Assembly (NCBI GenBank): GCA_011033025.1
Contig: WFMF01000338.1
Location: forward strand, 62,001 to 126,000
Source of the DNA: Beroe forskalii
Lineage: Eukaryota > Ctenophora > Nuda > Beroida > Beroidae
Direction of reading: 5' to 3'
Length of the DNA: 64,000 nt
Of the stretch, positions 1 through 37,859 are shown in pieces. The number at the start of each line of letters is the position of its first letter. The first letter of the stretch is position 1. The position numbers and the translations under genes were made by a program. The notes under the pieces were generated by a model, which was not told the DNA's origin, ran no database searches, and saw nothing but the letters and a program-made list of their open reading frames with translations.

Positions 1-894
1 GAGTTCTGTTAAGCTTTGAAATGTGGGGTTTCCAGGAGAGTTTTTCATCTATTAATACTCCTAAAAATTTCGTTTCATTGACTTTCTTGATAATTTTACC
101 GTTTATTGATAGATTTAATTCTGGTGCCAGATTGTCGGCCCCCTTCTTGCTTGGAGAGAAGAGCATGTAGCAACATTTCTTTGTATTTATATGTAGTAAA
201 TTGGATTCCATATATCTGGATATATTAGATAAGATCTTATTTGCAATCAAGTATGCTTCTTCTCTAGTACTCCCAGTAACAAATATGTTAGTGTCATCTG
301 CAAACAAAATTATTTTACAGTTTTCAGCAGAGTTACAGATGTCATTTATGTAAAGTATAAAAAGAAGGGGGCCGAGAACTGAGCCTTGTGGGACACCAAA
401 ATTTACTGGCAGGGTTTCTGAAGTTTCATTAAGTACACTTACAAGTTGTTTCCTGTCAGATAGATAGCTTTTGATAAGATCTAGTGCATTGCCATTGATA
501 CCATAGTGGCTTAGCTTATCAGTTAGTATTTGGTGGTCGAGTGTGTCGAATGCCTTACTTAAATCAATAAATATTCCAAGGGTGTGCTTTTTTAGTTTAA
601 CTTGATTCCGTATGTATGTAACAGAGTAGTTCAAAGCATGGTTAGTAGAGTGGCCTTTTCTGAAGCCATACTGATTTTCATATATAACATCATTATCTTC
701 CAAGAATTGATAGAGATAAATTGAATATTAATTTTTCAAATATTTTGCCAAATATTGGTAAGGTAGATACAGGTCTGTAGTTCTCCATTAATTCTTCATT
801 ATCTTTCTTATAAATAGGACTTATTCTTCCTGTTTTGAGTTCATTGGGAAAATATCCCTCAGCCATGCATTTGTTATACATTCTAGTTAACACT
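1..894 (-). pseudogene. Non-LTR retrotransposon copy A, reverse transcriptase part
   Basis: Read on the minus strand, this is the RT domain of a CR1/Jockey-like element. Motifs in order are [57 protein letters not shown] and the catalytic FADD, followed by a thumb-like stretch ending in TKFLGVLIDEKLSW at the window edge. The frame is open from about base 715 to base 1, but a frameshift near 715-725 separates it from the upstream part, which starts directly at the MULE insertion. The rest of the same copy lies at 6140-8007, on the other side of the inserted transposon. The 3' end lies outside the window. Family assignment is by motif recognition; the clade was not tested. Confidence 0.88.
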
Positions 895-5894: not shown

Positions 5895-6139
5895 CCTGGG
5901 TGAACTGGAAAATTGGCGAACTAGTACACCGAATACGCGTGTATTCGCGGCGAATTCAGGTGAATTCAAGTGAATTCGCCGGAGTTCGCGGCGGACTCCG
6001 GCGGAGTCCGGCGGAGTCCGCCAAAAAAATTTTTTGGCGAACTCCGCCGCGAATTCACCTGAATTCACCTGAATTCACTTGAATTCGCGGCGAATTCGCG
6101 GCGAATTCAGGTGTACTTGCAAAAATCGTGGATTATGCC
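5895..6139 (-). repeat. Right terminal inverted repeat of the MULE
   Basis: Reverse complement of 895-1140. The outer 150 bp is nearly identical to the left end. The sub-terminal region at 5795-5895 has GGCGAACTCAGGCGGACTCC repeats that are related to, but not paired with, the left sub-terminal words. Confidence 0.9.
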
Positions 6140-7316
6140 TTAACACTGGTGCAGTGATGTTAGCAGTATGCTTAATAACATGAACTGGGATGTCACTTGA
6201 TTTACCAAGTTTAAGTTCAGCCATTATAGATTCCAGTTCCTCCTCATTACAATCTCTAAGGTTAATTGTATTTTCACATCTATCCTGTAAGAAATCATTA
6301 AAGTTTGATAACGGGTTAATCCTAATGCCATTATCGTCAATATAAACTCTATTTAGTGATGGGGCTAGTGAGACAAAGTACTTATTGAATTCATGAGTAA
6401 TTACTCTCCTGTCTGTTATCCTTTTGTTATCTACCAAAAAGTTGGGCTTGATTAGTCGCCTATGCTTACCTCTTACATTATTAATAACTTTCCAGATCTT
6501 TTTACTATCACTACCACATTCATCTACCTTAGAACCTAAATAGTTTGATTTTCTTTGACTAATTAAGAACTTCAGCCTTTTCCTGTAATCCCTAAATTTA
6601 ATATACTTAGTTCGTATATCAGAACAAAAGATACAGCTACAAATATAACGGTCAGCTACTTCGGTGTTTCTATTCACACATCGTTTCTTCTTAGCAGATT
6701 CCCATAGCTTAAATAATTTGTCTTTGTGTGCAATAGAGACAATTAGTCCACCTGTTATCCATGGATTGTTTATTGCAGTTCGTTTAGAATGCTTAGGTTT
6801 CTCTAGTTTACAAGATTTGTCAAGCTTATCCTGAAAAGAGCATGCAAATTCTTCAAAATTGTTAGGAGGGTTACTTGTTAGTTCGTTTTCTAGTTCGTTC
6901 TTAAAGTTTTCAACATTTGAGTTACAGTAGTCATAATATTGTATGTACTTGTTAACAGTTGCATTATGTGGAGTGATTCCCTCACATACTTGGACTAGGG
7001 CTAGGTGATGGGAGATACCGATTTTCAGTGTGCCAGATAAGATAGTGTATTCAGGTGCATTAGTGAAAATATTATCTATACATGATTTTCTACAGCCAGG
7101 TTTCTCATGGGTATAAGTTGATATGAGGGGATAAAAACCTAGGGCAAGGGTGGTGTCTTCTAGCAGTTGTACTTCTTTGGAGTTACTTTTGTGCAGATCT
7201 ATATTAAAATCTCCCATAATATGTACTGAGTTTTTAGGTAGCTGTTTGGCTATATCATTGAGTTCAGTCAGAGCATCACTTAGGACCCCACTAGGTGGTC
7301 GGTATATTACACCCAC
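6140..7316 (-). pseudogene. Non-LTR retrotransposon copy A, endonuclease and linker part
   Basis: Minus-strand frame with AP-endonuclease motifs VGVIYRPPSG, HIMGDFNIDL, CIDNIF and ISHHLAL, then a basic linker (NNPWITGGLI, RKRLKFLISQRKSNY) typical of CR1/Jockey ORF2 before the RT. It is open until the MULE insertion at 6139, where the next codons come from the transposon TIR. The RT continues at 894-1. A small insertion near 7335-7345 puts it out of frame with the N-terminal part. Confidence 0.88.
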
Positions 7317-7329
7317 TGTTGATGATTTG

Positions 7330-8007
7330 TCATTTATAGGTACTTATGGTTACAAAGAGGGTTTCTAAGTTACCACTAACAGACGAAAGTGACGAGTTTA
7401 TTACAGCATTCAACGAATCACTTACATAAAGGCATACACCAGTTCCTTTTGGTTTATCTTCGATTATATCTTGATAGAAAGCTGTGTATCCAGGTATACT
7501 ATAATATACAGTACTTTCATCTGCAGTTGTATTAGTTTCTGCTAGACCAATTACAGAAAGTTTTAGTTTCATACGGTGGACTTGGGCAGAGAATAGATCA
7601 AAGTTGCTTTTGTTACCATCTATATTTTGAAACAACATACTGCCATGGGATTCAAGCTCATTATTACAGATTGAGTTGAAGTTATCTATATCATAAGATT
7701 TACAGTTATCTAAAATACTTGAGATGCTTCTGATAAACTCATCACTTTCATCATCTTCATCATCAACATCCTGTGTAGAGAGAGGACTATATTTGGTCTC
7801 AATATCTACTTTACATAAGGAGCAGTAAGAATTTTTGTTAATAATTTCACCATTTGATTCCTTGAAGCAGAATTGGTGATAGATTTTGTCACACTCAAAG
7901 CACTCATATGCATTTTGACCAACATTTATGTTCTTTACACAATGGTTGCATTTTTCCCTTATATTATGCAGATTGAATTTGCTAGGTTCCCAATCCTGCT
8001 GGGTCAC
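7330..8007 (-). pseudogene. Non-LTR retrotransposon copy A, PHD-type zinc finger and start of endonuclease
   Basis: A 225-aa frame. Residues 13-60 form a Cys/His finger (CNHC, CFEC, YHQFC, YCSLC) of the PHD type known from CR1-like elements. An acidic linker (DDEDDESDEF) follows, then the start of the endonuclease (MLFQNIDGNKSNFD, VIGLAETN with the catalytic Glu, GTGVCLYVSDSL). It stops after TLFVTIS because of an apparent 4-base insertion; the next frame continues as VGVIYRPPSG. The 5' boundary of the element was not found but may lie near 8.1-8.3 kb. Confidence 0.85.
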
Positions 8008-16904: not shown

Positions 16905-18000
16905 GACAACGTCATCTCTGTAAATGGAGTACATTCCATATCTTCACTCGTTCTTAGTGGTGTCCCACAAGGCTCTGTACTCGGCCCTATTCTCTTCCTC
17001 ATCTATATCGATGACCTTGAAAACTGTCTGGATGGTTCAACTTCCGGAAGCTTTGCTGACGATACTCGTCTCAGTAAATCTGTAAGCTGCTGCGAAGACC
17101 AGACTATTCTCCAACAAGATCTCCTGAAAGTCATCGATTGGTCCGTAGCAAATAACATGCTACTTCATGAAAACAAGTTCGAGCTCCTCACCTACAGAAC
17201 ACCTAGAAGCCACCTTCTCCAGCAGCTCCCATTCACATCCCAGTGGACCAAGTACATCACTACGTCTGGTCAAGAAATACTCCCGGCACCAAGTGTTAAA
17301 GACCTTGGCATAATGCTCACCCCTGACTTGAAATGGTCGACTCAGGTCAAGACTGCTGTCGAAAGTGCCAACAAAATGGCAAACTGGGTGCTTAGTGTCT
17401 TCTCAGACAGATCCCGAAATACCATGCTCACCCTCTTCAAGTCCATTGTCCGAAGCAGACTGGAATACTCTTGTCCAGTATGGAACCCCACACTAACGAG
17501 TGATATCCAAAGGCTAGAATCACCACAAAGAGCCTTCACTCGTCAAATATCCGGCTGCAAAGGTCTCAGTTATTGGGAACGCCTAAAGAAGTTAGATCTC
17601 ATGTCAATCCAGAGACGCCGAGAAAGATACATCATCATCCAGGTTTGGAAGATTCTCAAAGGTATCGCTCCCAATGACCTCCAACTGAAGTCCTACGAAC
17701 ACATCCGTCTAGGAACTCGATGCTCTGTTCCACCTCTACCAAAGAAAGCTCCTTCATACGCCAAGTCACTGTTTGATAAATCATTCGCAGTGACTGGCCC
17801 AAAGCTTTGGAACATTCTCCCCTGCAGCGTCACCTGTGCTCCGTCCATAGAGTCTTTCAAATCGAGACTAACATCCCATATCATGATCACGTATCCAGAT
17901 CAACCACCAGTACCCGGGTATACCTCTCCCAACTCAAACTCGCTACTGGACTGGAGCACAGGTGGTCTACAACAGATGGTCTAGCTCGAATTTCCAGCAA
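16905..18000 (+). pseudogene. 5'-truncated non-LTR retrotransposon (copy B), RT C-terminal half
   Basis: Open frame with SGVPQGSVLGPILFLIYIDD, the catalytic FADD, then SVKDLGIMLTPDLKWSTQ, SIVRSRLEYSCPVWNP and a C-terminal region ending DWSTGGLQQMV. It lacks the RT fingers and everything upstream. It is absent from the colinear place in copy 2 of the block (about 39.19-39.21 kb), so it inserted after the copies separated or is polymorphic. The 3' junction is a short GAGGTACAAGAGGTAGG repeat. Different clade from copies A, C and D. Confidence 0.88.
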
Positions 18001-24365: not shown

Positions 24366-26235
24366 GATGCATTTAGTGCAGTGGTAAATGAAAAACTTAG
24401 TTCAGTCTCCTCAAATATGGAATCACTTTTTTTAACAATTCAAAATGAGGGTAAGGACATAAATATTGGGACCATATATCGATCTCCAAATGGGGATAAT
24501 GAACAGTTCTTTGAAGAGTTTACCTCATTAATTGAACAGTTTCCAAAAAACACCAAATCAATAATAATGGGTGACTTTAACTTTAATTTATTCAAACGAT
24601 TAGATCCATCTGTGCTTAATTTTGAAAATATATTCCTCTCAAATGGTTTATTCCCCTGGTATCCTAGCCACTCATAGCACTGGTAGACAGAGTACCTGTA
24701 TTGACAATATCTTAGTGAGTGATATTGGGGCTGTTTGCTTGTCAGGAGTTGTTCGTGATATGGGAGCCACCACTCACCTATATTCTCATTCTTTAACATA
24801 GACTTTTCTGGCAAAAACCACAGCTCCAGTATCCAGATACAAGAATACTGTTATTCGAATAAAAATATTGAGGCCTTGTATGAAGAACTGAATGGTGACT
24901 TAATTGATGTTTGTAAAGAACTAGATTTTGAGTCATTTTTTGAATTATTTTCGAATAGTGTCGACCAGTGCTGCAAATTGAAAAAAGCTATTCACTCCAA
25001 AAGAAATCCTGTCAACAATCCTTGGATAACTGATGGAATAATTGATGCCATTGAACACAAGAATAATTTATATCTTGACTGGTTTAAGACCAAGAAAAAT
25101 GCAGTTGATACAGGTAACCAAATTATTTATGAAAATTTTAGTAAATATCGGCATGCCCTCAAAAGAATCATTAAAAGATCAAAAGGCTAAGTACTACAAA
25201 AATAAAATAGAAAAAACCTCTGGGGATATCAAAAGACGTGGGAAGTGATAAACCAATTGAGAGGCAAGAGCAAAAAAAGCTACAAAAGCCAAACTTCATG
25301 ATTGATGGCACAGTCATCATACAAGCAACAATTGCAAATAAGTTTAATGAATACTTTGCATCATAGCATCAATCTCAATGACAAAGTAAATCTAGATTCA
25401 ACTGCCAATGTGGTCAACAACTCCTTTAGAAAATTTATGCCCCTCCCTTGAGAAGAGCATTTTTCTTGAGGACTGCACTGAAGAGGAAGTTGCTGAAATT
25501 ATTAGCAAACTTGAGAATGGCAAGGCAAGTGATTTTCCCATACGAGTAATAAAAAAACTCTCCCAAATTTTAACACCAATCCTTACAGCCCAATTTAATA
25601 ACTTAATGTCAGAGGAGTATTCCCTCATGCCTGAAGATTGGGAAAATTACCCCAGTGTATAAGAAGGATAATGAACAACTACTAGAAAATTATAGGCCTG
25701 TGTCTACACTCCCAATATTTGGAAAATTTTGAAAAAATTATTTACACCAGACTTTATAGCTTTTTGCATCAAATGGAGTAATTAAAGATAATCAATTCGG
25801 TTTTGGGAAGGTCACTCAACTTCACATGCACTTAATTATTCAATTTACCATAAATCAATCACTTCAAAACAAAAACATGTATTAGGTATATTTATTGACT
25901 TAAGCAAAGCATTTGATACAATTGATCATGGAATACTCCTTGAAAAACTCGAAATTTATGGAATTCGTGGCATCCCATTGAAATTAATTGAGAGCTATTT
26001 GTCAATAGGAAACAATATGTGAGCGTTCTCAATGAAATCTCAGATAAGTTACCAGTAATATTTGGAGTGCCTCAAGGTAGCTGCCTTGGTCCCCTACTCT
26101 TCTTAATGTACATTAATGATATTTCAAATGCCCAAATTGATGCTGAATTTGTCCTCTTTGCAGATGACACAAATATATTTGTTAGTGGTAAAGATAAAAT
26201 AGAAGTCAAAAAATATATGGATATACTAAAATCAC
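24366..26235 (+). pseudogene. Non-LTR retrotransposon copy C, truncated at both ends
   Basis: Same family as copy A. Blocks in order: VVNEKLSSVSSNMESLFLTI, IGTIYRSPNG and IMGDFNFNLF (endonuclease), NNPWITDGIIDAIEH (linker), [54 protein letters not shown] and FADDTNIF (RT). At least five frameshifts or gaps. It starts right at the end of duplicated block copy 1 and is cut off after the FADD region by the 3' end of element D. Confidence 0.88.
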
Positions 26236-26600
26236 TTTATTATAAACGTTAAATCACTCAATCAAATAGAAATATAGAAAGTAAAACTTCACGTCAAGCT
26301 ATGTATGCCATCTTCGGCTCACCGTCTTTATTATGGTGACATTATGTCAAAATCACTTGTTATGATTTGAACTCGCTATTCATTCTCAAATCTAACATAC
26401 CCCCATGACACTCGTTACTATAATTAGAGATCTTTATGTTGATAATCTGGATAAGTATCATACGTGATATTAGCACATTTAAGGTTTGAGCGCGACACTT
26501 TTATCAATTTAATTGATGACGTTCGCACGCGTTGGCAGTTAAGATGGTAATGAATGTGAGATAAGTAGCTGCAGATATGCGCTGTGCTATGAATGCCTCA
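26236..26600 (-). other. Element D 3' untranslated region
   Basis: Non-coding tail after the ORF2 stop, ending at AATAAAGTGATTTT, where copy C sequence resumes on the other strand. AGTGATTT occurs twice within the last 32 bases, reminiscent of the short repeated 3' ends of CR1-like elements. No poly(A). Confidence 0.55.
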
Positions 26601-29600
26601 CTATGTGCTTATGTGCTGTTTAGATCGTGTATTTCGGGCCGATTTTCTCAACCCGTTGATTTTGTGTAAAAGAAACTGTGGCCATTCCTCATTGTCAGCA
26701 TCGCCATATTGATTCATGAGTAACATTCTTTTGATAGCTGATTTGTATAACGATAATGATGATTTATTTTCGACCGTTAGAACTGACTGATTTTCGTCAC
26801 TGAGGGTGAGCAGTGGCCCTTTATTGAAGACAGATGATATGAAAGGTACACCATTATATACAGTTAGCCAGTCTAAGCAATCATGATGAGTTTCCCCAAC
26901 TTTTGGGATGTTGTCTGGGATTGTTTTCACTATGGACGATGGCAGTAGGTTCGGGAAATGTAAGACTTTATGCATGAAGAGGAGAGTATTTTGTACAATA
27001 ATTCCGTGCACTGTTAAGATTTCGAACTCTTTGAAGTAATTTTTTGTATGGGTTGGTGTTTCACCTTCATTGAAAAAGTATTTGACAAAACCAGGCATGA
27101 CGGCCCGCATTCCTCGCTTTTGTTTGATAAACAAAGATTGAATATGTGTCTTGGCAGCAAATCCCCAGATTAATGAGCAGTAATTTAGATGAGATTGGAC
27201 AAAAGAATGGAAAATTTGAAGACGTATTCCGACTGGTAATCGGTGTTTAATCCTGAACATTATCCCCAGGTACCTTGACATTTTCATGTTAACTGCCGCA
27301 ATGTGATGGGACCAGTTTAATTTGTCATCCATTATGACCCCCAGGAAACGGCATTCGCTTTTACGTTCTATATTTACACTGTTTATCTTCAATTCAATAT
27401 TTGATAGGTCTAATCGTTGCCGTGCGAAGATCATGCACTTAGTTTTCTTCAGATTTAGAGCCAAACCATTGAAACCGACCCATGTTACGAGGATTTTACT
27501 TAGTGAATTTACATTTTGCATCACTTCGTGTAGACTATTTCCAGTTATGATGATATTAGCATCGTCGGCGTATAGTATGAACCGGGCAATTTGAGAAATA
27601 TGTGGTAGATCATTAATGTAGATTATAAACAAGAGAAGGCCTAGTATGCTACCTTGAGGTACCCCGTAGATAATGGGCTTAGTCGAGGATTGAGAGTTGT
27701 TAACTGATACGAATTGCTCTCTATTGTGGAGATATGACTTAAACCAATTGTATGCCATTCCTCGTATTCCATAGTGCTGAAGTTTGTGTAGTAGGATCTG
27801 GTGTTCTACTATGTCAAAAGCCTTAGAAAAATCAATTAGGAGCAATAGCGCGATCTGTTTTTTACTCAACGTCTGTAGCAATTGGTTGTTGGCATCAAGT
27901 AGAGCATGTTCACAAGACCTGCCTGGACGGAAACCATACTGACTTTCGAAGAGAACATTGTTCTCGTCGAGAAATTCATATACTCTGTGGTGCATTAATT
28001 TTTCGTATACTTTGGAGACCGTGCTTAGCAAGGATATCGGCCTGTATTTAGTGACGTCATTACGAGAACCTTCTTTGTGAATAGGTACTACTCGCGCAAG
28101 TTTGAGAGCTTGTGGAAAGACCCCTTGTTCAAAGGACGTATTTATCATTTTAGCAACCGTTTCAGTGAAACACGGGTAATCATTAGCTAACTTTAATGGC
28201 TCAATTTTTGTATCTAGGGTGGATTTGTTTTTGAATTTTTTAATTATTTCATGAACCTCGTTGGATTCGACTGGCCTCAAGAATATGGAATTCTGGCTAG
28301 GATTGGTTAAAAAGGTTTTGAAACCGCCCGGATCAAAATTCATTCTGGCTGCTATTTCCTTCTTTATTGTAGCAGCAATACCAGAAAAGTAGTCATTAAA
28401 TTGTTCGGCGACGCCTAAATTAGAGTTCATCGGCTTTCCTTCTGAATCATTCAATTTTATAGTGCCAGATTGCTTTGTCTTCCTATTCAAAAGCCCATTA
28501 ATCATGGCCCATTGTTTTTTTGAGCAATCCTTATAGTCATCGAAGAATTTCGCATAATACTGTTTTTGTGCAATTTTCTTATGCTTTTCGCAGAATTTAT
28601 GTAACTTTTTGTAAGCAGCATGGTTTTCGGCCGTCGGTTCGGAGACAAACGTGTGATAGAGATCCTGTTTTCGCGCACACGCACCCTCAAGCCAAGGCAG
28701 AATCCATGGCTTAGGGTTTTTTCGTTCGTTCTTCCTGCGGGCTCTATTCGTTTTAAGAGGATACGCGTTGTTATAGTGGCTAATGTATATTTCATTAAAA
28801 GTGTTGTACTGAGCTTCAGCGTCGTCCGATTCGAAAACTCTCTCCCAGCTTTCGCCCTGTATGAGAGCTTCGAACTTCTGATGGCTAGTCTCATCAAAAA
28901 CTCTGAACTCCTTATTTTTACTTAATTCATCGCTTTTAGTGAGTTTTTTGCGCGCACAGTAATTAACATCACTCAGATTAATTGTAGTAAGCGTTGCTAA
29001 GTGGTCCGAAATGTCGGCAGTGATGATGTTGCAACTTGTTGTATTTTCTAGATTATTACTGTAAACATGGTCTATTAACGTGCATGAATTTTCCGTTATG
29101 CGCGTAGGTCTAGAAACGAGCTGCACGAAGCCATATTTTGATAGTGTATCAATTAAGTTTTGCGCTGCTTTGAAGTTTTCATGTTTGAGAAGGTCAATGT
29201 TCAAATCACCTGTTAAGACAATATGCTTGCGCGAGTGACGGTTTAAACTGCGGCATAATTCGTCAAGAAGAGTGACAAAAATATCCGCATTGCCAGAGGG
29301 TGACCTATAGATATTCCCTATTACTTTAGTGCTACTATAGCCTTTACATTCACCTATCTTAATAAACTGGAACTCTCCACTAAGGTTAGTTCGATCAGAG
29401 AGCGGATCTAATTCTACAATGCTCTCCGCATCGCAAACACGCTTATTTATGTAGGTTATGAGTCCTCCCCCTTTCCCAGAAGAGCGTAGTGGGTTTTTAA
29501 AGATAGGATCATGGAAACCCTCCAATACAAGATCATTTTCTTTGTTGGCAAGTTTTTCAAAGATAAAATTGGTTTCACAGAAACACAGAACGTCGTACTT

Positions 29601-30299
29601 TTGATAGCTATTAATTTCTTCGCGGAGATGATCTATCTTATTGAGAAGCGACTGAACGTTAAGAGAAAAAATTTTGAGCTCCGTTTCTTTTGACATTCTG
29701 ACATTTTTCTCCTGCTTGTATTGGCAACTTACCAGAAATTCCGAAATTTTATTCCAGAAATCGTTGTTTTGCGCCTCGTCTTCTAATATGCTACCTGTTT
29801 TATTAAGGATATAGTTTTGTGCATACGGGTTAAAAATATGGTTATTAAGACGCTCATAGTCCATGTACAGTTCATAACTCGTGGTATAATAGCCAGGGAT
29901 AAGTTCATTGCAGCATTTTACACAACCAAGTTGATTTTTATGACATTTATTGTGTACTAGGCCGTCGCACCACGTGCACGTTTTTACGTTTCTGGGTGAT
30001 TGTGACCAACCTCCGCAGCACGTGCACTGTACCTTGAATTTAGCTGGCGTGTGATTTATTTTCTTGTTATTGTTTTTCTTTGTAGTGGTGACACAAGCAT
30101 TTATTGGGAGCGCGTCTGATATGCAATCGATGCATGTCCATAAGACATTAAGCTCAATTATATGCGCGGCCTCATTTTTGGAAAGTTTTTGACATCTGAA
30201 GTGTTTATGCTCGTCACAGTTAGAACAGAATAATTTTGGTCGGTTCTTTGCTAAACGAACATTGCAAGTGTAGCAAAAATTACATGCTTTAGTTTTCAT
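26601..30299 (-). CDS. Element D ORF2: PHD finger, AP endonuclease, reverse transcriptase (1232 aa)
   Basis: Intact single frame of a CR1/Jockey-like retrotransposon, which would nick target DNA and reverse transcribe its own RNA there. Residues 7-60 and 91-130 are Cys/His zinc fingers of PHD type. About 205-440 is an apurinic-type endonuclease with N214, E242 (FCETN), GDLNID at 364-369, SRPTRI, LIDH and SDH at 431-433. The RT follows with PIHKEGSRNDVTKYRPISLL, YGFRPGRSCEHALL, LLIDFSKAFDIVEH, GVPQGSILG and catalytic YADD. The C-terminal about 250 residues are the usual thumb and tail. All key residues are present, so it may be recently active. ORF1 lies about 1 kb upstream on the same strand. 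Confidence 0.93.
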   Translation of the reverse strand: MKTKACNFCYTCNVRLAKNRPKLFCSNCDEHKHFRCQKLSKNEAAHIIELNVLWTCIDCISDALPINACVTTTKKNNNKKINHTPAKFKVQCTCCGGWSQSPRNVKTCTWCDGLVHNKCHKNQLGCVKCCNELIPGYYTTSYELYMDYERLNNHIFNPYAQNYILNKTGSILEDEAQNNDFWNKISEFLVSCQYKQEKNVRMSKETELKIFSLNVQSLLNKIDHLREEINSYQKYDVLCFCETNFIFEKLANKENDLVLEGFHDPIFKNPLRSSGKGGGLITYINKRVCDAESIVELDPLSDRTNLSGEFQFIKIGECKGYSSTKVIGNIYRSPSGNADIFVTLLDELCRSLNRHSRKHIVLTGDLNIDLLKHENFKAAQNLIDTLSKYGFVQLVSRPTRITENSCTLIDHVYSNNLENTTSCNIITADISDHLATLTTINLSDVNYCARKKLTKSDELSKNKEFRVFDETSHQKFEALIQGESWERVFESDDAEAQYNTFNEIYISHYNNAYPLKTNRARRKNERKNPKPWILPWLEGACARKQDLYHTFVSEPTAENHAAYKKLHKFCEKHKKIAQKQYYAKFFDDYKDCSKKQWAMINGLLNRKTKQSGTIKLNDSEGKPMNSNLGVAEQFNDYFSGIAATIKKEIAARMNFDPGGFKTFLTNPSQNSIFLRPVESNEVHEIIKKFKNKSTLDTKIEPLKLANDYPCFTETVAKMINTSFEQGVFPQALKLARVVPIHKEGSRNDVTKYRPISLLSTVSKVYEKLMHHRVYEFLDENNVLFESQYGFRPGRSCEHALLDANNQLLQTLSKKQIALLLLIDFSKAFDIVEHQILLHKLQHYGIRGMAYNWFKSYLHNREQFVSVNNSQSSTKPIIYGVPQGSILGLLLFIIYINDLPHISQIARFILYADDANIIITGNSLHEVMQNVNSLSKILVTWVGFNGLALNLKKTKCMIFARQRLDLSNIELKINSVNIERKSECRFLGVIMDDKLNWSHHIAAVNMKMSRYLGIMFRIKHRLPVGIRLQIFHSFVQSHLNYCSLIWGFAAKTHIQSLFIKQKRGMRAVMPGFVKYFFNEGETPTHTKNYFKEFEILTVHGIIVQNTLLFMHKVLHFPNLLPSSIVKTIPDNIPKVGETHHDCLDWLTVYNGVPFISSVFNKGPLLTLSDENQSVLTVENKSSLSLYKSAIKRMLLMNQYGDADNEEWPQFLLHKINGLRKSARNTRSKQHIST

Positions 30300-31279
30300 A
30301 GTTATAGCTATGAAAGCTCAGAACTTATGTTATTATATTAAATATTTTTTATAAATAAAGTAGATAAATAGTGCGTTTCTTATTTACGTACGTCTGTTGA
30401 TATTAACTAAAAATTATTGCTATTTATAATATAATATATAATATGCTGTACTGTACTTATGTGTTAGTATAAACCCTGATATAAACCTCGCTCAACCAAT
30501 TTTCCGAAAACCGTTCGGTTTTGTGTGTGTAAATTGGCTAGAGCAAAATATATCCTTACCTGCCCAGAATTTACCTAGATTAAGTAGCTAATACTATATA
30601 CAAGAAAATATATTACAAAATAATAAGTGTTGTAACGTTTTTGTTCGTATTGATTCGTATTTGTTCGTATTTGTGAATCTGGTATTAAATTAAATCAGTT
30701 AAATCAGGCTTAATGAAGTATACACACTGCAGCCGTTAATGGTGTAATGGTGTCGATGTGATTGTCGAGTGTCTGTATGTTTGTTTGTGCATGTTATGTG
30801 TGTGTGTTCGGTGTCTTATCTGTAGTACCTACATGTTAGCATAATGATATCAGTTGAAAGAGATGCGCACTGAGTTGTGTAAACGAAATTGAAGGTAATG
30901 CCTTGCCTGCATCATTCTAAGTTATGAGATGACATATTGATTGATTTAACAAAATGCAATTTGCAACTATGAAATTACTTTATGAGTGAGATAAAAATTG
31001 CAGATAAAAATTTAGATAAAAATTTAAGAAATTAAGGTGCCCAGTAAATGTATAAAGATTGCTGATTTGTGTCTCGCTGTTTTGAGTGTTGTGAATTTGT
31101 TACCAGTGCCTTTGAAAGAAAAATTCATAAGTTAAAAGAGAAATTCATAATTTCGCGTGTGGTACCGAGTGTCTATAGAGTTTTTATAATAAGTTTTAGG
31201 AGTGTCACGTGGTAGGTTCTTGAGAATTACATTTCTTAAATCAACGAGCTTTCATGCAAAATATACCGAAGTTAAAATT
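30300..31279. other. Spacer between element D ORF1 and ORF2
   Basis: About 980 bp without coding potential, with TTCGTATTTGTTCGTATTTG and AAATTTTTATCT short repeats. This is long for an inter-ORF gap of a CR1-type element, in which the ORFs usually overlap or nearly touch. Confidence 0.5.
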
Positions 31280-33180
31280 TCATCCCGCAGATGACATGTA
31301 ATCCTGATACATTGATCTGAATTTTGGACGGATTTGTAAATACCCCTTTTTAAAACCCAATCTAACTAGAATGACATTGACCCAGCAATTCGATAGAGAT
31401 AATTTTCCTGAGTGATTTAAATGAATACCATCCCTAGACAGATGTGCTAAACCAAAAGACAAGTTATCGAAGAGTTTGAAGTGGTTAGTTCTGATGGAGA
31501 AACTAAAGAGAAGTTGGTTGGTCTGATCGATCAGGTTATTTATTTTGTTAAACCTGTCGGCATTCATGTTGAGAGGGCAAATGGCGTCGAATAAGAACTG
31601 TGTGGCCTTGTGATGCGACGCGAACCATTTGACATGGTCATGAAGGGTCTGTGGGGAGACATGGTTCCTACGCAGGTCATTGATTCCAGCGCTGATGAGT
31701 ACTAAGTCCGCCTGCTCAATTGCCTCCTTGTGCTGGTCTAAGTCCCTTAGATAGAACAAGTCCTTCCTGAAAACTGCTAATGGGTCTGGGAACTGTGAGC
31801 AGTCAAAATCGCGGTTTTTCGAGTCAGACAAGATCAGAACTTTCTTTCTAGGCGGGGAAAAGGCCCTTCTCGTTGACCTCGTTGAGGGGTGACTGTCCGT
31901 TACAGAGCGGCGATGGTGCTGGGGCACGTTTCGAGGCGTTGTAATTGAGGGGTAATTGAGGGTCTTTAGCTCTCTGAAAGTGATACTGATGCGCACCCCA
32001 TCAAAATCTTCACGTCGCACTCGGGGCACGGAATGATCATACCAGTCCTGTGAGAACCTTGTCATGGAATAAACCTCACCATGGCGAATCTCCATGGTTT
32101 CTTCAGTGTACGGGCCTGGGGGCTTCCTGCGGAATACTACGCGACGTGTTCCGCCAAGGGACACTGTGAGGATTTCGCTGTCCCTCACAAGTGAAGACTC
32201 ATCATCAGAGTGAGGCGGAATACAGGAATCAGGATTGTCGTATTTTGTGACCATGACACTGTTGAATCGCTCGTAATCAATCCCATACTCAGTACAAAGA
32301 TCACGCACTGTGCTCATAATGGTCGTGAGGTATGAATTGTCGGATATGTTCCTTGTCGCGTGACTACCGCCTGCATACTTATAGGGAACATCTCCATAGT
32401 AGGCCACGCTACGCGTCTCGAACTTCCTATCATAGTGTGTCTCCGCATCGAGCTGTTCGGCGCTGAACTCATAAAAGGGCGTTCCCGCAAACTTGAAATA
32501 GGGGCGCGGAGTACCTGGCAGATGTTGTGGAGTACCGGCAGAGAGGGTGGATGAGGAAGTGCTAGAGGGGGGAGACTCAGGGGTAGGGAGAGCTGTGGTG
32601 GAAGCCTGTGTGTCTGCGAGGGATTGTAGTGTTTTCCGTGCAGTACTGATGGACTTGTTCAAGTGCTCCATTTCTTTCTTAGCTTGCTCCACGTTCCTCG
32701 AAATAAGACTACCTTAGGAGGTTTATTTATAAAGGTTGTAATTTGGGGATTTTTCTGAAAAATCCCCATTTTATCACCCACCACGAAATTTCGACTTGAC
32801 GTCATTATCATATGTTAACAAGAGTAAAAACTTGAAAAATCCCCATATTTTCAACTTACCAAAATTTAAAACACCGAAATTTCATCCCACATAAATACAC
32901 CTCCTAAGGTATTTAGTTTGTACAGTTTATCTCTCATATCGTCGTTTTGTATACGTATTATAGTATTGAAATATTGTGAGAGAGCCTGTTTTTTCAGTCC
33001 AGGCGTGTTCATAGACGTTAAATCGTCAGTGCTGAATTTGTACTTTACTTCTCTATCAAGTTGTTGATCAGAAAGATTGTCTATAACTTCTAAACACGTT
33101 ATAGGAGTCAGACAGAAACTGTAGCATCCCGCGTCTGTCACTGAATCAGACGTGTCACTGCCCGCTCTAGCTGTTGCCAT
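31280..33180 (-). CDS. Element D ORF1: coiled coil + AlkB-like dioxygenase + SGNH hydrolase, interrupted by a MITE
   Basis: The N-terminal part (MATARAGSDTSDSVTDAG to KLYKLN, 33180-32912) and the C-terminal part (from about 32709) join in frame when the 198-bp MITE at 32712-32909 and one TA are left out. The joint falls in a coiled-coil-like stretch. Counting from the internal Met at 32692: residues 60-245 match AlkB-type 2-oxoglutarate/Fe(II) oxygenases, with iron ligands H161 and D163 (PPHSDDES) and H220 (DHSVPR), and the 2OG-binding GVRISITFR (R234, R240). Residues 284-430 match an SGNH/GDSL hydrolase: SDS at 289-291, GIND at 336-339, DGIH at 421-424. SGNH (esterase) domains are known in CR1 ORF1; AlkB is not a usual partner. 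Inferred role: RNA-binding ORF1 protein with possible RNA demethylase/repair and esterase activities. As it stands it is broken by the MITE. Confidence 0.85.
32712..32909. mobile_element. 198-bp TA-flanked MITE inside ORF1
   Basis: Ends CCTTAGGAGGTTTATTTAT and the complement of CCTTAGGAGGTGTATTTAT, with TA on both sides (32710-32711 and 32910-32911). It contains the self-complementary GGGGATTTTT/AAAAATCCCC. Likely Tc1/mariner-derived. It introduces a stop into the ORF1 N-terminal reading frame. Confidence 0.85.
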
Positions 33181-33991
33181 ATCAAAGACTTACGCTGTTA
33201 TTAGGGCAACGGTGGACTTATGTCACTATCGGAAGAAGGCCCAGTCTGTTACTGGGGCCACCGAGCCCGGGTCTTGCAGTCGTTGTTGTCAGATATCAGC
33301 TGCAGTGCGCTGCGCGTCCATTAAGCATGAATTGTAAGCATTGCGATAAGCGAGCTTATTTTAACACGCAACAACGAGAGTATAGCAAGAGATGTTAACT
33401 TTTCATGTAGCAGGCTGGAAGCGGGTAAAATGCAGCTGAATTGATAGCGTAATATGTGAACAATCCGTTTCTAATAAATTAAGTTAATTCAATTATTTAT
33501 AGATTTAGTTAAGATAAGAGCTTAGTGATATGAATATGTTGCGTGTCTGTTGTATGTTCTAACCAATAAACTTCTCAGAATGTATGACTATGATGAATGA
33601 TATATTCATTGAAATATCACAAGAACACGACGTTTTAATTGTTACAATTGAAGATGTTTGTAACCACTCTACTCGTCCTATTTCTGATTAAATTGACGAA
33701 GAAATCCCTATTCTACACACCGTTCCTATAGTTGATGCTGATTTCATTTCAGTGTAACGAGAACCAGTGACTTATCGGTCTCTAAAAAGTTCCCTCCCGC
33801 ATTATCGGTTAGTTTCCCTCGACATTGCTCCGTGTCCATCACGGCATAACTTCATACTACCCCATTAACTTGCGCTGGGAATCATACGTCCTCTGAAATT
33901 TAATTTGATAATTTCACAATGCTCGACTGCCCGACTGCTGAACGCAGCTTTTATGATTATCATTTCCACTTTACTCCGTTATTAACATCAG
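33181..33991. other. No gene seen; likely 5' region of element D
   Basis: The first 150-200 bases upstream of the ORF1 Met are GC-richer (CCGAGCCCGGGTCTTGC) and may be the element's 5' UTR. The rest is AT-rich unique sequence. No 5' boundary or target duplication of element D was found. Confidence 0.4.
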
Positions 33992-34162: not shown

Positions 34163-35411
34163 TGGTGGTACATCAGTAGATCACGTTTAGTTATACACGC
34201 TAGTGTTAGCGAATGGATTTAATTTAATACAATAATGCATTATTGGTTGAATTGTTATGAAGTCTATTGTTGCAAGCATTTGACGTTGATTTCCATTTAA
34301 TGTGCTAGTGGAACCCGCGGTGTGATAGATGATGCACCTATTTTGTTTAGCTGTTAATGCAGTGTGTTTTGGAATTCTTTACGTAAACTGTTGAGCTGTT
34401 TACAGTATTTTGAACCATGAAAGCTGATTGGAACAATGCACATCAACTGTACGTACGGTAGTGCCAGTCATGGATTAAAATCGCAGGTATTTCCTTAACA
34501 ACTTATTTAACAGGTAATAATCGCTTATCAGCTATAATTAATGGCCGTTTAAGCCTCGTTTTTAACCGAAAGAAAAACCGCTCAGTGAGCGATTGTAAAC
34601 TGTAATTTCGATGCGCGTTTATTAACGCTAATTTAGCGGAATTATTATCCGGCAACTAGCGGTGGGCTAAAATAGCTTTTTTCGCTAATATACCAGTATT
34701 AGCGTCTTCTCAAATTTTCAGATAAATTCTATTGAAGTGTTAAAGAAGTTAATAAAAAACATCGAAAAAACCCAAATTCCTCCTTCTTCCCGTCATTTAT
34801 CACTGTCAAACCCCTTCTTAATATACCTATAGATAAGTTGACATTCACCGCTAAATATTGCTGGCTCATCACAATGTGATGACTATTAATGGGACTTGCC
34901 TCCTTGGGAAATTTAGACACATCAAATTTGAAACTATTTACGACACTTGAAACGATTTACGACAGTTAAGCCTTTGTCTTTTTTTTTCTTTTTTTGCCTT
35001 TGTCTAAAACATCTGGAACAGCATTGTCTAGTACATCTATAACATAGAATGTTCTGAATTTGAATAAATTTTGTATTAGAATTTGAAATATTCTCAAATG
35101 ATCGTTACTAATAACTGACACCTATCAGTTCCATGAAACAATGGATGTCGGAGCCGGCCATTGTTTGATTTAACTATAAATTATAACTATAAATTATAAA
35201 TTATTTAACTATAAATCATAAATTATTTTTTTTAATAATTTCTCAGTTTACTGCGAATAAGCTATATTTGACGAAATGACGACTTTCACCTGTCACAGTC
35301 AACCATCTGGCCTGATTGATGGTAGACTATATAATATGGGGATGACAGACGACAAACCATTCTCAGCTGTACCAAACCAACTGACAAAGAGAAAAACGAC
35401 AGTCTCTCACG
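34163..35411. other. No gene seen
   Basis: AT-rich spacer with short direct repeats ACTATAAATTATAA at 35170-35225 just ahead of the protease gene. No clear TATA box or CCAAT box arrangement. Confidence 0.5.
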
Positions 35412-36617
35412 ATGATGAAGTTCCTTACGCTGGTGACTGCGATCCTGACCCTGACCCAGTCACAAGATGTTCGGGATCTCTTCCGGGAAACCATGTCAAA
35501 GTTTGGAGCCAAAGACGGACTCCTCCGATCCGAGCCCCCCGAAGTAATTGAGAAGCGGTTCAACTCCTTCGTCGAGTTCAACGCCAAGGTGGAGGAGGTG
35601 AACAGCGACGCTTCCCGGCCCTACACAGCCACTGACAACTTCCTGTCTATTCTGACCGAGGAGGAGAGGCAGATGCACCTGGGTCTTAATATCAGTGGAG
35701 TGGCACCTGACCGCCTGAAGAGGGATGCCAGTTACAGGGTCCTCCAGAAACGAACTGATCTCCCAGAGAGCAGAGATTTCAGCGGAATTCTACCTCCTGT
35801 CAAGGATCAGGGAACCTGCGGTTCTTGCTGGACCTACGGCGCTGCCGCGGCTGTGGAGGGAGAAATCTACTTCGCCACAGGAACCAAGGGGGTGAGCCTC
35901 TCCGAGCAGGAGTATTTGGAATGTGCCACGGCTTCTGACGGTTGTCAGGGTGGCTGGCCCCAGGACTGCCTGGACTACTCCAAGGAGAAGGACAGGATAG
36001 CCCCCACGAGTGGGTACCCCTACTTAGGACGGGACAGGATGAGCTGTCACGTGACCGCCACCACCCCTAACGCTCTGGTAGATAACAACGTGAGGGTGCT
36101 TGGGTACACTATGGCGTCCGGAGACGACAACCTGCTGGCTGCTGCTGCTACTCATGTCCTGACGGTGGCAGTCCACGCTAACATCTACTTCCAGGGCTAC
36201 TCCCAGGGTATCTACGTGGACGACACCTGTCAGGACGAACTGAACCACGCCGTGGCTCTGGTTGGGTATGGAGTGGATAGTGCGAGTGGGAGGAAGTACT
36301 GGAGAGTGAGGAACAGTTGGGGGGCGGCCTGGGGGGAGGTAGGAAACATCCTCATGGACAGGGAGAAGGAGAACATGTGCCAGATCTCCACTTATCCTGG
36401 CTTCCCGGATCTAGAGTGTAGGAGTACTGCTGGGTGTGTAGCTCCTAACCCAGATGAGGGAGATAGCTCTGATGAGGAGGAGGAAAATAAAGATGAAGAG
36501 GAAGAGGAGGAGGAGGAGGAAGAGTTTGATTATTATGATTCTTGCCCCGAGGTAGCTTTCATGACTGGTTGCATGCCGCTTGTCAGATATCAAAGGTGGG
36601 GAGAAAGTGCTGGGTGA
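35412..36617 (+). CDS. Papain-family (C1A) cysteine protease, cathepsin L-like, with acidic C-terminal linker
   Basis: Residues 1-17 are a signal peptide (MMKFLTLVTAILTLTQS). Residues 20-110 are an I29-type propeptide with an ERFNIN-like pattern (EKRFNSFVEFNAKVEEVN). Mature domain from about 115: oxyanion Q133 and nucleophile C139 in QGTCGSCW, GCQGG at 177-181, catalytic H279 (LNHAVALVGYG) and N301 (RNSWG). All catalytic residues are intact, so an active secreted or lysosomal protease is expected. After about 345 comes an acidic run (DSSDEEEENKDEEEEEEEEE), then FDYYDSCPEV and a stop. The coding region has no intron, unlike the tubulin genes. The Cys-rich continuation in another frame (to 36997) is probably part of the same protein. 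The second ATG of ATGATG could also be the start. Confidence 0.9.
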   Translation: MMKFLTLVTAILTLTQSQDVRDLFRETMSKFGAKDGLLRSEPPEVIEKRFNSFVEFNAKVEEVNSDASRPYTATDNFLSILTEEERQMHLGLNISGVAPDRLKRDASYRVLQKRTDLPESRDFSGILPPVKDQGTCGSCWTYGAAAAVEGEIYFATGTKGVSLSEQEYLECATASDGCQGGWPQDCLDYSKEKDRIAPTSGYPYLGRDRMSCHVTATTPNALVDNNVRVLGYTMASGDDNLLAAAATHVLTVAVHANIYFQGYSQGIYVDDTCQDELNHAVALVGYGVDSASGRKYWRVRNSWGAAWGEVGNILMDREKENMCQISTYPGFPDLECRSTAGCVAPNPDEGDSSDEEEENKDEEEEEEEEEEFDYYDSCPEVAFMTGCMPLVRYQRWGESAG

Positions 36618-36997
36618 GTTCGCAACAATCAGGAGAAAATAGATACAACTACAAAAACTGGATTGTTACTCGGAAACACTGCGATAGTGAAACAAGACCA
36701 GGGAACTGCAAGGAGAAAGTCTACCTCAGTGAGTGTAAGACAACCTGGGAAGATGCCTGGTATACCTGCACGGAAAACGTAGCTGCGAAGGACTGTATCT
36801 TTGTGGAAGTGGAGAGGAAGAAACAGTTCTGCTACTACGTGACTGATGGGAGGACCTCTGGGAGGAGATGGGTGGAAAAGAACGTCCCTTGTGAGGAGGA
36901 GGAGGAGCCGTGCAACACAGCGGGAGGGATGGTCTTCTGCAGTGACTGCAAGTGCTGCAAACACAAGCACTTCTGCTCTGATACGGCCGGCCACTAG
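36557..36997 (+). CDS. Cys-rich C-terminal domain of the protease gene, shifted frame
   Basis: An open frame of about 140 codons with some 20 cysteines: CQISKVGRKCW, NYKNWIVTRKHCDS, NCKEKVYLSECKTTWEDAWY, TCTENVAAKDC, then an acidic CEEEEEPC and FCSDCKCCKHKHFC before a TAG. The acidic and Cys-rich style continues from the protease tail, so a frame change between about 36560 and 36612 (sequencing indel, real mutation or tiny intron) seems to split one protein. The domain is not recognised. It has no start codon of its own worth proposing. Confidence 0.6.
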   Translation, partial: FHDWLHAACQISKVGRKCWVSSQQSGENRYNYKNWIVTRKHCDSETRPGNCKEKVYLSECKTTWEDAWYTCTENVAAKDCIFVEVERKKQFCYYVTDGRTSGRRWVEKNVPCEEEEEPCNTAGGMVFCSDCKCCKHKHFCSDTAGH

Positions 36998-37000
36998 TGA

Positions 37001-37270
37001 CACCAGCTAGTTACACCTGCTAGTGACCCCAGCTAGTGGCACACCAGTTAGTGACACCAGCTAGTGACACCAGCTGGTGACATCAGCTAGTGACACCAGT
37101 TAGTGTCACTAGCTAGTGAACGCAAGCTAGTGACACGCCAGTTAGTGACACCAGTTAGTGACACCAGCTAGTGACACCAGCTAGTGACACCAGCTAGTGA
37201 CACCAGCTAGTGACACCAGCTAGTGACACCAGCTAGTGACACCAGTTAGTGTCACCAGCTAGTGATGCAC
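37001..37270. repeat. 13-bp minisatellite CTAGTGACACCAG
   Basis: About 20 copies of CTAGTGACACCAG with variants (TTAGTGACACCAG, CTAGTGGCACACCAG). It starts over the stop codon of the protease reading frame (CACTAGTGACACC) and so forms the start of the 3' UTR. A likely poly(A) signal AATAAA is at 37457-37462. Confidence 0.88.
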
Positions 37271-37859
37271 CAGCTGCAAGTTGGGGATGCTTCTGCATGA
37301 ATTATGATTTTACTTATCCTTAAGCTCTAATGAGCTTATGTTGAATATTTGACCTGCATTTGTTTTTTCTGATGACTTTGTTTCCATTTTACAACATATA
37401 AACCCAATTGAAAAGTTTTAAATCCTGAAAGTTAAACGTCTTATCTGACGGCAGACAATAAACAGCCAGTCCTAATAAATACATAGATAATAAATACATT
37501 AATACATTAAATTTAATGAATTATAAAAAAAGCCTAGCAGTCAGAATTACACATAATATGTACTTCTGAAGCATGTTTATAGCCTTTGTGCAAAGCAAAT
37601 GTATAGGAAACCACCTATAAGTCTTCTATGAGAGTAGAATTATCCCAAAGGGGTCATTAGAATTAATAACAAAAGGTCTTAATTTTTGAATAAATTTATG
37701 TTCATTGATTTCTAAATTTTTGGGATTAGAATTCATTAAGATAAGAATTTCACCAGAGGTATTAGAATTAACTTTAGAATAAAATTCGAATAAAATCCTT
37801 GATCTGGTAACCAATAAAAAAAATTTTCGTCCAAGGGGCCGGTTAAAACGGTTCAAAAA

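What the first reader, a model, noticed from the sequence alone, without database searches (positions are those of the whole stretch)
31280..33180. Retrotransposon ORF1 that fuses an AlkB-like dioxygenase with an SGNH hydrolase
Seen: one frame carries PPHSDDES, DHSVPR and GVRISITFR (complete Fe and 2OG ligand set of AlkB) and then SDS, GIND and DGIH (SGNH blocks), after a coiled coil, about 1 kb upstream of an intact PHD-endonuclease-RT ORF on the same strand. Known: CR1-like ORF1 proteins can carry an esterase domain, and AlkB domains occur in some plant RNA viruses, where RNA repair is proposed. Inference: the element may protect its own RNA from methylation damage or remove m1A/m6A-type marks before reverse transcription. 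I am not aware of AlkB as a regular ORF1 domain.
Basis: partly seen in the sequence, partly recalled or inferred. Interest (0 to 1): 0.88.

Follow-up and report, generated by a model that had tools for sequence, protein, structure and literature searches.

The report
LINE ORF1 carrying AlkB demethylase domain
Several families of a jumping-gene type (LINE retrotransposons) in what is probably an animal genome carry, in their first protein, an enzyme domain of the AlkB kind that elsewhere removes methyl damage from RNA and DNA, fused to an esterase, perhaps so that the element can clean its RNA before copying it into DNA.

The parts
26206..33378 (-). Non-LTR retrotransposon copy. 26206 is where similarity to two 99% copies ends, 33378 where similarity to the C184 copy ends; the true 5' end may lie further out and about the last 100 bp of the 3' UTR are missing here
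   Evidence: copies C913 (L059) and C401:142-146k (L060) share the 3' part and are 5'-truncated at different points; C184 (L009) covers 31704-33378
31280..33180 (-). ORF1 (first ATG at 33180, stop at 31280-31282), split by the MITE
   Evidence: the N-terminal motif TCLExxDxLxxxQLxRE is also in homologues
32712..32909 (.). 198-bp MITE inserted in ORF1, TA duplication at 32710-32711 and 32910-32911, terminal inverted repeat CCTTAGGAGGT
   Evidence: 38 other places among the scored DNA matches, empty site in the C184 copy
32603..32704 (-). N-terminal long helix, coiled coil likely (residues 4-37 of the 477-aa frame)
   Evidence: AlphaFold model; coiled coil itself inferred
31961..32515 (-). AlkB (2OG-Fe(II) dioxygenase) domain, residues 67-251; Fe ligands H168 (32210-32212), D170 (32204-32206), H227 (32033-32035); 2OG arginines R241 (31991-31993), R247 (31973-31975)
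   Evidence: conservation
31346..31849 (-). SGNH esterase domain, residues 289-456; S298 (31820-31822), G343, N345, D428 (31430-31432), H431 (31421-31423)
30318..31279 (-). Inter-ORF spacer, 962 bp, no long frame (longest 39 aa, sense strand); similar in length, not detectably in sequence, to the spacers of two related elements (913 and 947 bp)
26601..30317 (-). ORF2, 1238 aa, open (first ATG at 30299): PHD-like Cys/His fingers, endonuclease 29001-29666, reverse transcriptase 27333-28082
   Evidence: other scored ORF2s in the genome are 42-59% identical, besides two partial copies at 99% over most of their length

Best explanation
This is a copy of a LINE-type (APE endonuclease) retrotransposon whose ORF1 protein has three modules: a probably oligomerising helix, an ALKBH2/3-like AlkB demethylase, and an SGNH esterase. 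Shown: domains, predicted folds, conserved active sites, linkage to ORF2 in related loci, purifying selection in relatives, and that it is a whole population of elements in at least three architectures. Inferred: ORF1p binds its own transcript in cis, as ORF1 proteins generally do; in the RNP the AlkB domain oxidises away N1-methyladenine, N3-methylcytosine and similar Watson-Crick-face methylations, which stop reverse transcriptases, so that target-primed reverse transcription can run through a 6-7 kb template; the SGNH domain supplies lipid or membrane interaction as in the ZfL2-1 ORF1 esterase. It would be the natural version of the laboratory trick of treating RNA with AlkB before reverse transcription.
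For: Domain and fold: window; other types. Active site over 149 AlkB rows (121 homologues, 27 loci of this genome, the window), gaps set aside: Fe ligands 145/145, 145/145, 149/149, 2OG arginines 141/143 and 140/141, Glu after HxD(D/N) 143/144; over 145 SGNH rows S 121/121, G 143/143, N 143/143, D 128/132, H 130/132. Selection: AlkB dN/dS 0.11-0.45 in the nine of 37 pairs with AlkB dS below 0.8, whole ORF1 0.20-0.53 in the same pairs. Linkage: 30 of 35 loci; AlkB and ORF2-fragment distances correlate, r 0.71, 0 of 2000 permutations as high. Class: ALKBH3 5.8e-26 and ALKBH2 1.3e-23, against E. coli AlkB 0.005 and ALKBH8 0.006, with the profile. Reverse-transcription blocks and their removal by AlkB: PMC7968990 (abstract and passages).
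Confidence: 0.5

Rival explanations
1. m6A eraser: the AlkB domain removes m6A (or a host mark) from element or host RNA to escape RNA-level silencing, as proposed for orchid Ty3/Gypsy elements.
For: A retrotransposon-encoded AlkB with RNA binding and m6A demethylase activity in vitro is published (PMC9289625, abstract and passages).
Against: The domain is nearest ALKBH2/ALKBH3, not the m6A enzymes ALKBH5/FTO. In human cells m6A helps L1, and overexpressed ALKBH5 lowers its mobility about fourfold (PMC7873242, passages).
Confidence: 0.17
2. DNA repair role: the domain acts on single-stranded target DNA or nascent cDNA during target-primed reverse transcription, removing 1meA/3meC (ALKBH2-like).
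Against: ALKBH3, equally near, was solved with single-stranded substrate (entry titles) and is known to act on RNA too (PMC8917145, listing); nothing here separates RNA from DNA.
Confidence: 0.2
3. The AlkB fold is kept as a nucleic-acid-binding or structural module without catalysis.
For: ORF1 proteins need an RNA-binding module and Pfam showed no RRM or zinc knuckle.
Against: Fe ligands invariant in every aligned row; 2OG arginines changed in only 2 of 143 and 1 of 141; a pure binding fold would not need them. Rows were found by similarity, which favours intact ones.
Confidence: 0.1
4. Captured or host ALKBH gene lying by chance next to an unrelated LINE.
For: In the window the spacer is long (962 bp) and the DNA search found only two copies of this ORF1.
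Against: 116 ORF1-related places on 85 contigs; 30 of 35 loci with ORF2 downstream; spacers of 947 and 913 bp in two related elements.
Confidence: 0.02

Closest known systems
Type IV (esterase) ORF1 of CR1/L2-lineage LINEs, e.g. ZfL2-1 (PMC3905857, PMC4120745; passages)
   Same: SGNH/GDSL esterase with catalytic Ser, Asn, Asp-His; PHD fingers occur in the same superfamily, in one L2 subgroup probably at the start of ORF2; ORF2 with EN and RT
   Different: ORF1 types I-V as described in PMC4120745 hold RRM, CCHC, PHD, coiled coil and esterase; no AlkB in the passages seen and no occurrence of 'oxygenase'
Orchid Ty3/Gypsy (Tat/Ogre-like) elements with an AlkB ORF (PMC9289625)
   Same: Retrotransposon that encodes an AlkB-family dioxygenase
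   Different: LTR element of plants, separate additional ORF, m6A-type AlkB, called a recent acquisition. Here: LINE, AlkB inside ORF1 fused to an esterase, ALKBH2/3-like, many divergent lineages
Human ALKBH3 / ALKBH2
   Same: Fold and full ligand set, 22-28% identity
   Different: Host repair enzymes; here a module of a mobile element's first protein
AlkB domains of plant RNA viruses (Alphaflexiviridae, Betaflexiviridae, Closteroviridae)
   Same: Parasitic RNA replicon with its own AlkB, RNA repair proposed (as cited in PMC9289625)
   Different: RNA viruses; no reverse transcription (recalled)

Membership tests
Non-LTR retrotransposon (APE-type LINE) | Reverse transcriptase and APE-type endonuclease in one ORF | tested here: met
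   RVT_1 2.4e-36 and Exo_endo_phos 6.8e-10 in ORF2
Non-LTR retrotransposon (APE-type LINE) | No LTRs, no integrase or RNase H | tested here: met
   blastn of 25001-33400 against the window shows no flanking repeat, only one distant LINE fragment; no integrase or RNase H profile at E<=1 in ORF2
Non-LTR retrotransposon (APE-type LINE) | 5'-truncated copies with a common 3' end | tested here: met
   Two copies, C913 and C401, truncated at 27723 and 29216, share the 3' end
Non-LTR retrotransposon (APE-type LINE) | Target site duplication | not tested
   Window copy lacks its 3' terminus; other copies not examined for it
CR1 / L2 / Jockey clade | RT phylogeny with reference clades | not testable with these tools
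   No reference LINE set at hand; placement by architecture only
AlkB family (2OG-Fe(II) dioxygenase) | HxD...H and Arg ligand set on a double-stranded beta helix | tested here: met
AlkB family (2OG-Fe(II) dioxygenase) | 2OG-dependent demethylation | not testable with these tools
   Needs purified protein
SGNH hydrolase | Catalytic Ser, oxyanion Gly/Asn, Asp-x-x-His on the SGNH fold | tested here: met
Type IV ORF1 (esterase type) | Esterase in ORF1 | tested here: met
   a long helix precedes AlkB
Type IV ORF1 (esterase type) | Esterase as the only catalytic domain of ORF1 (as in the published examples seen) | tested here: not met
   AlkB domain lies between helix and esterase
Ty3/Gypsy with AlkB | LTRs, Gypsy pol with integrase and RNase H | tested here: not met
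Single captured host ALKBH gene | One copy, not linked to ORF2 | tested here: not met

The most novel reading that the evidence does not exclude
AlkB is a standing, old module of LINE ORF1 proteins in an animal lineage (ctenophores and possibly others), fused once to an esterase ORF1 and then carried through several LINE lineages; it works in cis as a template-cleaning enzyme, making these the first retroelements I know of with a built-in demethylate-before-reverse-transcription step.
Probability: 0.4. Interest if true: 0.92.

Novelty: new variant of a known kind. Interest (0 to 1): 0.82.

Why it matters
An RNA/DNA demethylase domain kept with an intact active site in many LINE lineages of one genome suggests that base methylation of the element's RNA or cDNA is a real obstacle to retrotransposition there. 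It makes the question of whether RNA methylation limits reverse transcription in nature testable with one purified domain, offers naturally diverse AlkB enzymes for RNA sequencing, and suggests that retroelements took up AlkB at least twice (plant Gypsy, here LINE).

Tried and rejected
Host gene capture and chance neighbours: rejected by the genome copies. Prokaryotic or viral origin: three scans of viral contigs and one of genome contigs gave no relative with the few patterns used; one of 71 homologues is labelled a Planctomycetes MAG, on a 1.4-kb contig, probably eukaryotic carry-over.

Upstream check of ten window-type ORF2 relatives: AlkB and SGNH by profile in 1 (L049, frame broken), SGNH by profile with the last AlkB residues by eye in 1 (L054), SGNH alone in 1 (L055), weak SGNH in 1 (L047), nothing in 6. 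Some of the six are 5'-truncated, interrupted by repeats, or were fetched over too short a stretch; for C581 an AlkB match lies about 4 kb upstream, outside it. Of the five AlkB-ORF1 loci without ORF2 nearby, L024 has ORF1 split by an insertion (L057), L032 ends 193 bp after the ORF1 match at the contig end, L029 has ORF2 on the other strand, L030 and L037 have none in the next 3 and 5 kb (L058, L056).

RT clade not placed. A tree of 76 rows (74 of the 149 ORF1 rows, with human ALKBH2 and ALKBH3 outside) put the 74 on one side, but two outgroups cannot prove a single origin. The host species was not identified; a ctenophore is suspected because three of 71 homologues are named Mnemiopsis leidyi, at 46-49% identity; horizontal transfer is not excluded.

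Literature (open-access library, no bioRxiv collection): eight searches aimed at AlkB or oxygenase domains in retrotransposons; a ninth (89) asked about AlkB and reverse transcription. All hits were shown in 7 (5), 50 (3) and 51 (0); 8 of 9 in 95; only part in 15 (20 of 103), 18 (20 of 228), 49 (15 of 471) and 96 (10 of 605). No listed title or abstract was about AlkB in a LINE ORF1. Repbase and most subscription papers could not be searched.

Full report
What is in the window. The finding lies on the minus strand. ORF1 starts with the ATG at 33180 and ends with the stop at 31280-31282, but a 198-bp MITE (32712-32909; TA duplications; inverted repeat CCTTAGGAGGT) splits it. The same MITE is at 38 other places among the scored DNA matches. 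The one other copy of this ORF1 found by DNA search, on contig C184, covers 33378-31704, lacks the MITE, and its frame runs from ...YKLN straight into SLISRNVE...; it has stops further on. The 477-aa frame after the MITE holds a long helix, the AlkB domain and the SGNH domain. ORF2 (26601-30317) is open for 1238 aa with endonuclease and RT. Two further copies of the 3' part, 99% identical, are 5'-truncated at different points and share a 3' end that runs past the window copy into a CCCTCACGAGGG sequence and an (AATC)n tail (tail read by eye). This is ordinary LINE anatomy; the window copy has a broken ORF1.

It is a family, not one protein. Three protein searches returned 71, 23 and 28 homologues, 121 different ones (candidates were capped in the last two). 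In 149 AlkB rows (121 homologues, 27 loci of this genome, the window), gaps set aside: H168 145/145, D170 145/145, H227 149/149; R241 141/143, R247 140/141; the Glu of HxD(D/N)E 143/144. Of 145 SGNH rows: S298 121/121, G343 143/143, N345 143/143, D428 128/132, H431 130/132. Not counted: the C184 copy, whose frame is broken, and the genome places that were not fetched or aligned. Rows were chosen by similarity, which favours intact copies.

ORF1 and ORF2 belong together. Of 35 loci with an AlkB ORF1 (35 of the 116 places), 30 have an ORF2 match downstream on the same strand: 29 at -20 to 687 bp between match edges, one (L063) at about 2 kb; L064 holds only the end of the RT after a deletion. 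None has one upstream, but for the eight loci L061-L068 no upstream sequence was held and for L040-L045 little. In the other direction, of ten relatives of the window ORF2 checked upstream, three carry AlkB or SGNH parts of ORF1, one a weak trace, six none in the stretch fetched. The window's spacer (962 bp) has counterparts of 947 and 913 bp in two related elements; those two are 71% alike over two stretches, the window's shows no similarity to them. AlkB and ORF2-fragment distances correlate over 225 pairs of 23 loci (r 0.71; 0 of 2000 permutations as high). No copy found other than the window's holds both ORFs of the window's own family, so there the link rests on its relatives.

Selection. 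Of 37 pairs of loci compared, the nine with AlkB dS below 0.8 give AlkB dN/dS 0.11-0.45, SGNH 0.07-0.52 and whole ORF1 0.20-0.53 (Nei-Gojobori). Eight pairs are type B and one type A; pairs share members; the closest rest on few changes; for L030-L035 the SGNH value was computed on the whole frame because no SGNH match existed. The other pairs are near or at saturation. The AlkB domain is about as constrained as the esterase. The window's own family and type C were not tested this way.

How it probably works. ORF1 proteins bind their element's RNA (established for LINEs in general; not tested here). Methyl groups such as m1A block reverse transcription, and AlkB treatment restores it (PMC7968990, passages). 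A demethylase of the ALKBH2/3 class tethered to the template would therefore help a LINE that must copy 6-7 kb of RNA. m6A removal is less likely: the class is wrong, and in human cells m6A aids L1 while ALKBH5 suppresses it (PMC7873242, passages). A DNA role at the nicked target or on cDNA is possible. The esterase may act as in ZfL2-1, whose esterase is active, slow, and binds negatively charged lipids (PMC3905857, passages).

What is new. PMC4120745 (passages) lists ORF1 types I-V without AlkB. The orchid Ty3/Gypsy elements (PMC9289625, passages) show that a retrotransposon can hold an AlkB, so the idea is not without precedent; the LINE ORF1 fusion, its spread and its ALKBH2/3 class are what differ. 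Eight searches aimed at the question listed no such LINE; four of them listed only part of their hits (15, 18, 49, 96), and one search listed 8 of 9.

Limits. Host species unknown; RT clade not placed; single origin of the AlkB not proven; no activity data; distribution beyond unnamed metagenomes and Mnemiopsis leidyi not known.

Noticed in passing
window 32712-32909: TA-flanked 198-bp MITE with inverted repeats CCTTAGGAGGT, 38 other places at 92-100% identity among the scored matches: probably a recently active family.
   Followed up: partly
window 24390-26246 (+), 5-893 (-), 6084-7593 (-), 16905-17843 (+): Fragments of other LINE ORF2s; the window element abuts the first one at 26206, without its own 3' terminus.
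   Followed up: partly
L059 and L060: 3' end of the window family: CCCTCACGAGGG (hairpin-like by eye) and then an (AATC)n tail.
   Followed up: partly
window 35385-36997 and 36994-37275: Papain-family cysteine protease gene (Peptidase_C1 8.3e-54) with a Glu-rich stretch; at its end a 13-bp tandem repeat, 21 copies.
   Followed up: no
L062:1439-4852: Type C element whose ORF2 frame (1138 aa, open, stop to stop) overlaps the end of the ORF1 frame by 70 bases.
   Followed up: no
L064:3-1595: Type C ORF1 running in frame into the end of an RT ORF: apparently an internal deletion that makes an ORF1-ORF2 fusion frame.
   Followed up: no
L056 (downstream of locus L037): Open AlkB-SGNH ORF1 frame (574 aa) with no ORF2 match in the next 5 kb: truncated copy or possible solo gene.
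   Followed up: partly
L009:2476-4577: Long tandem repeats whose frames read as PPENG and similar units, next to the C184 copy.
   Followed up: no
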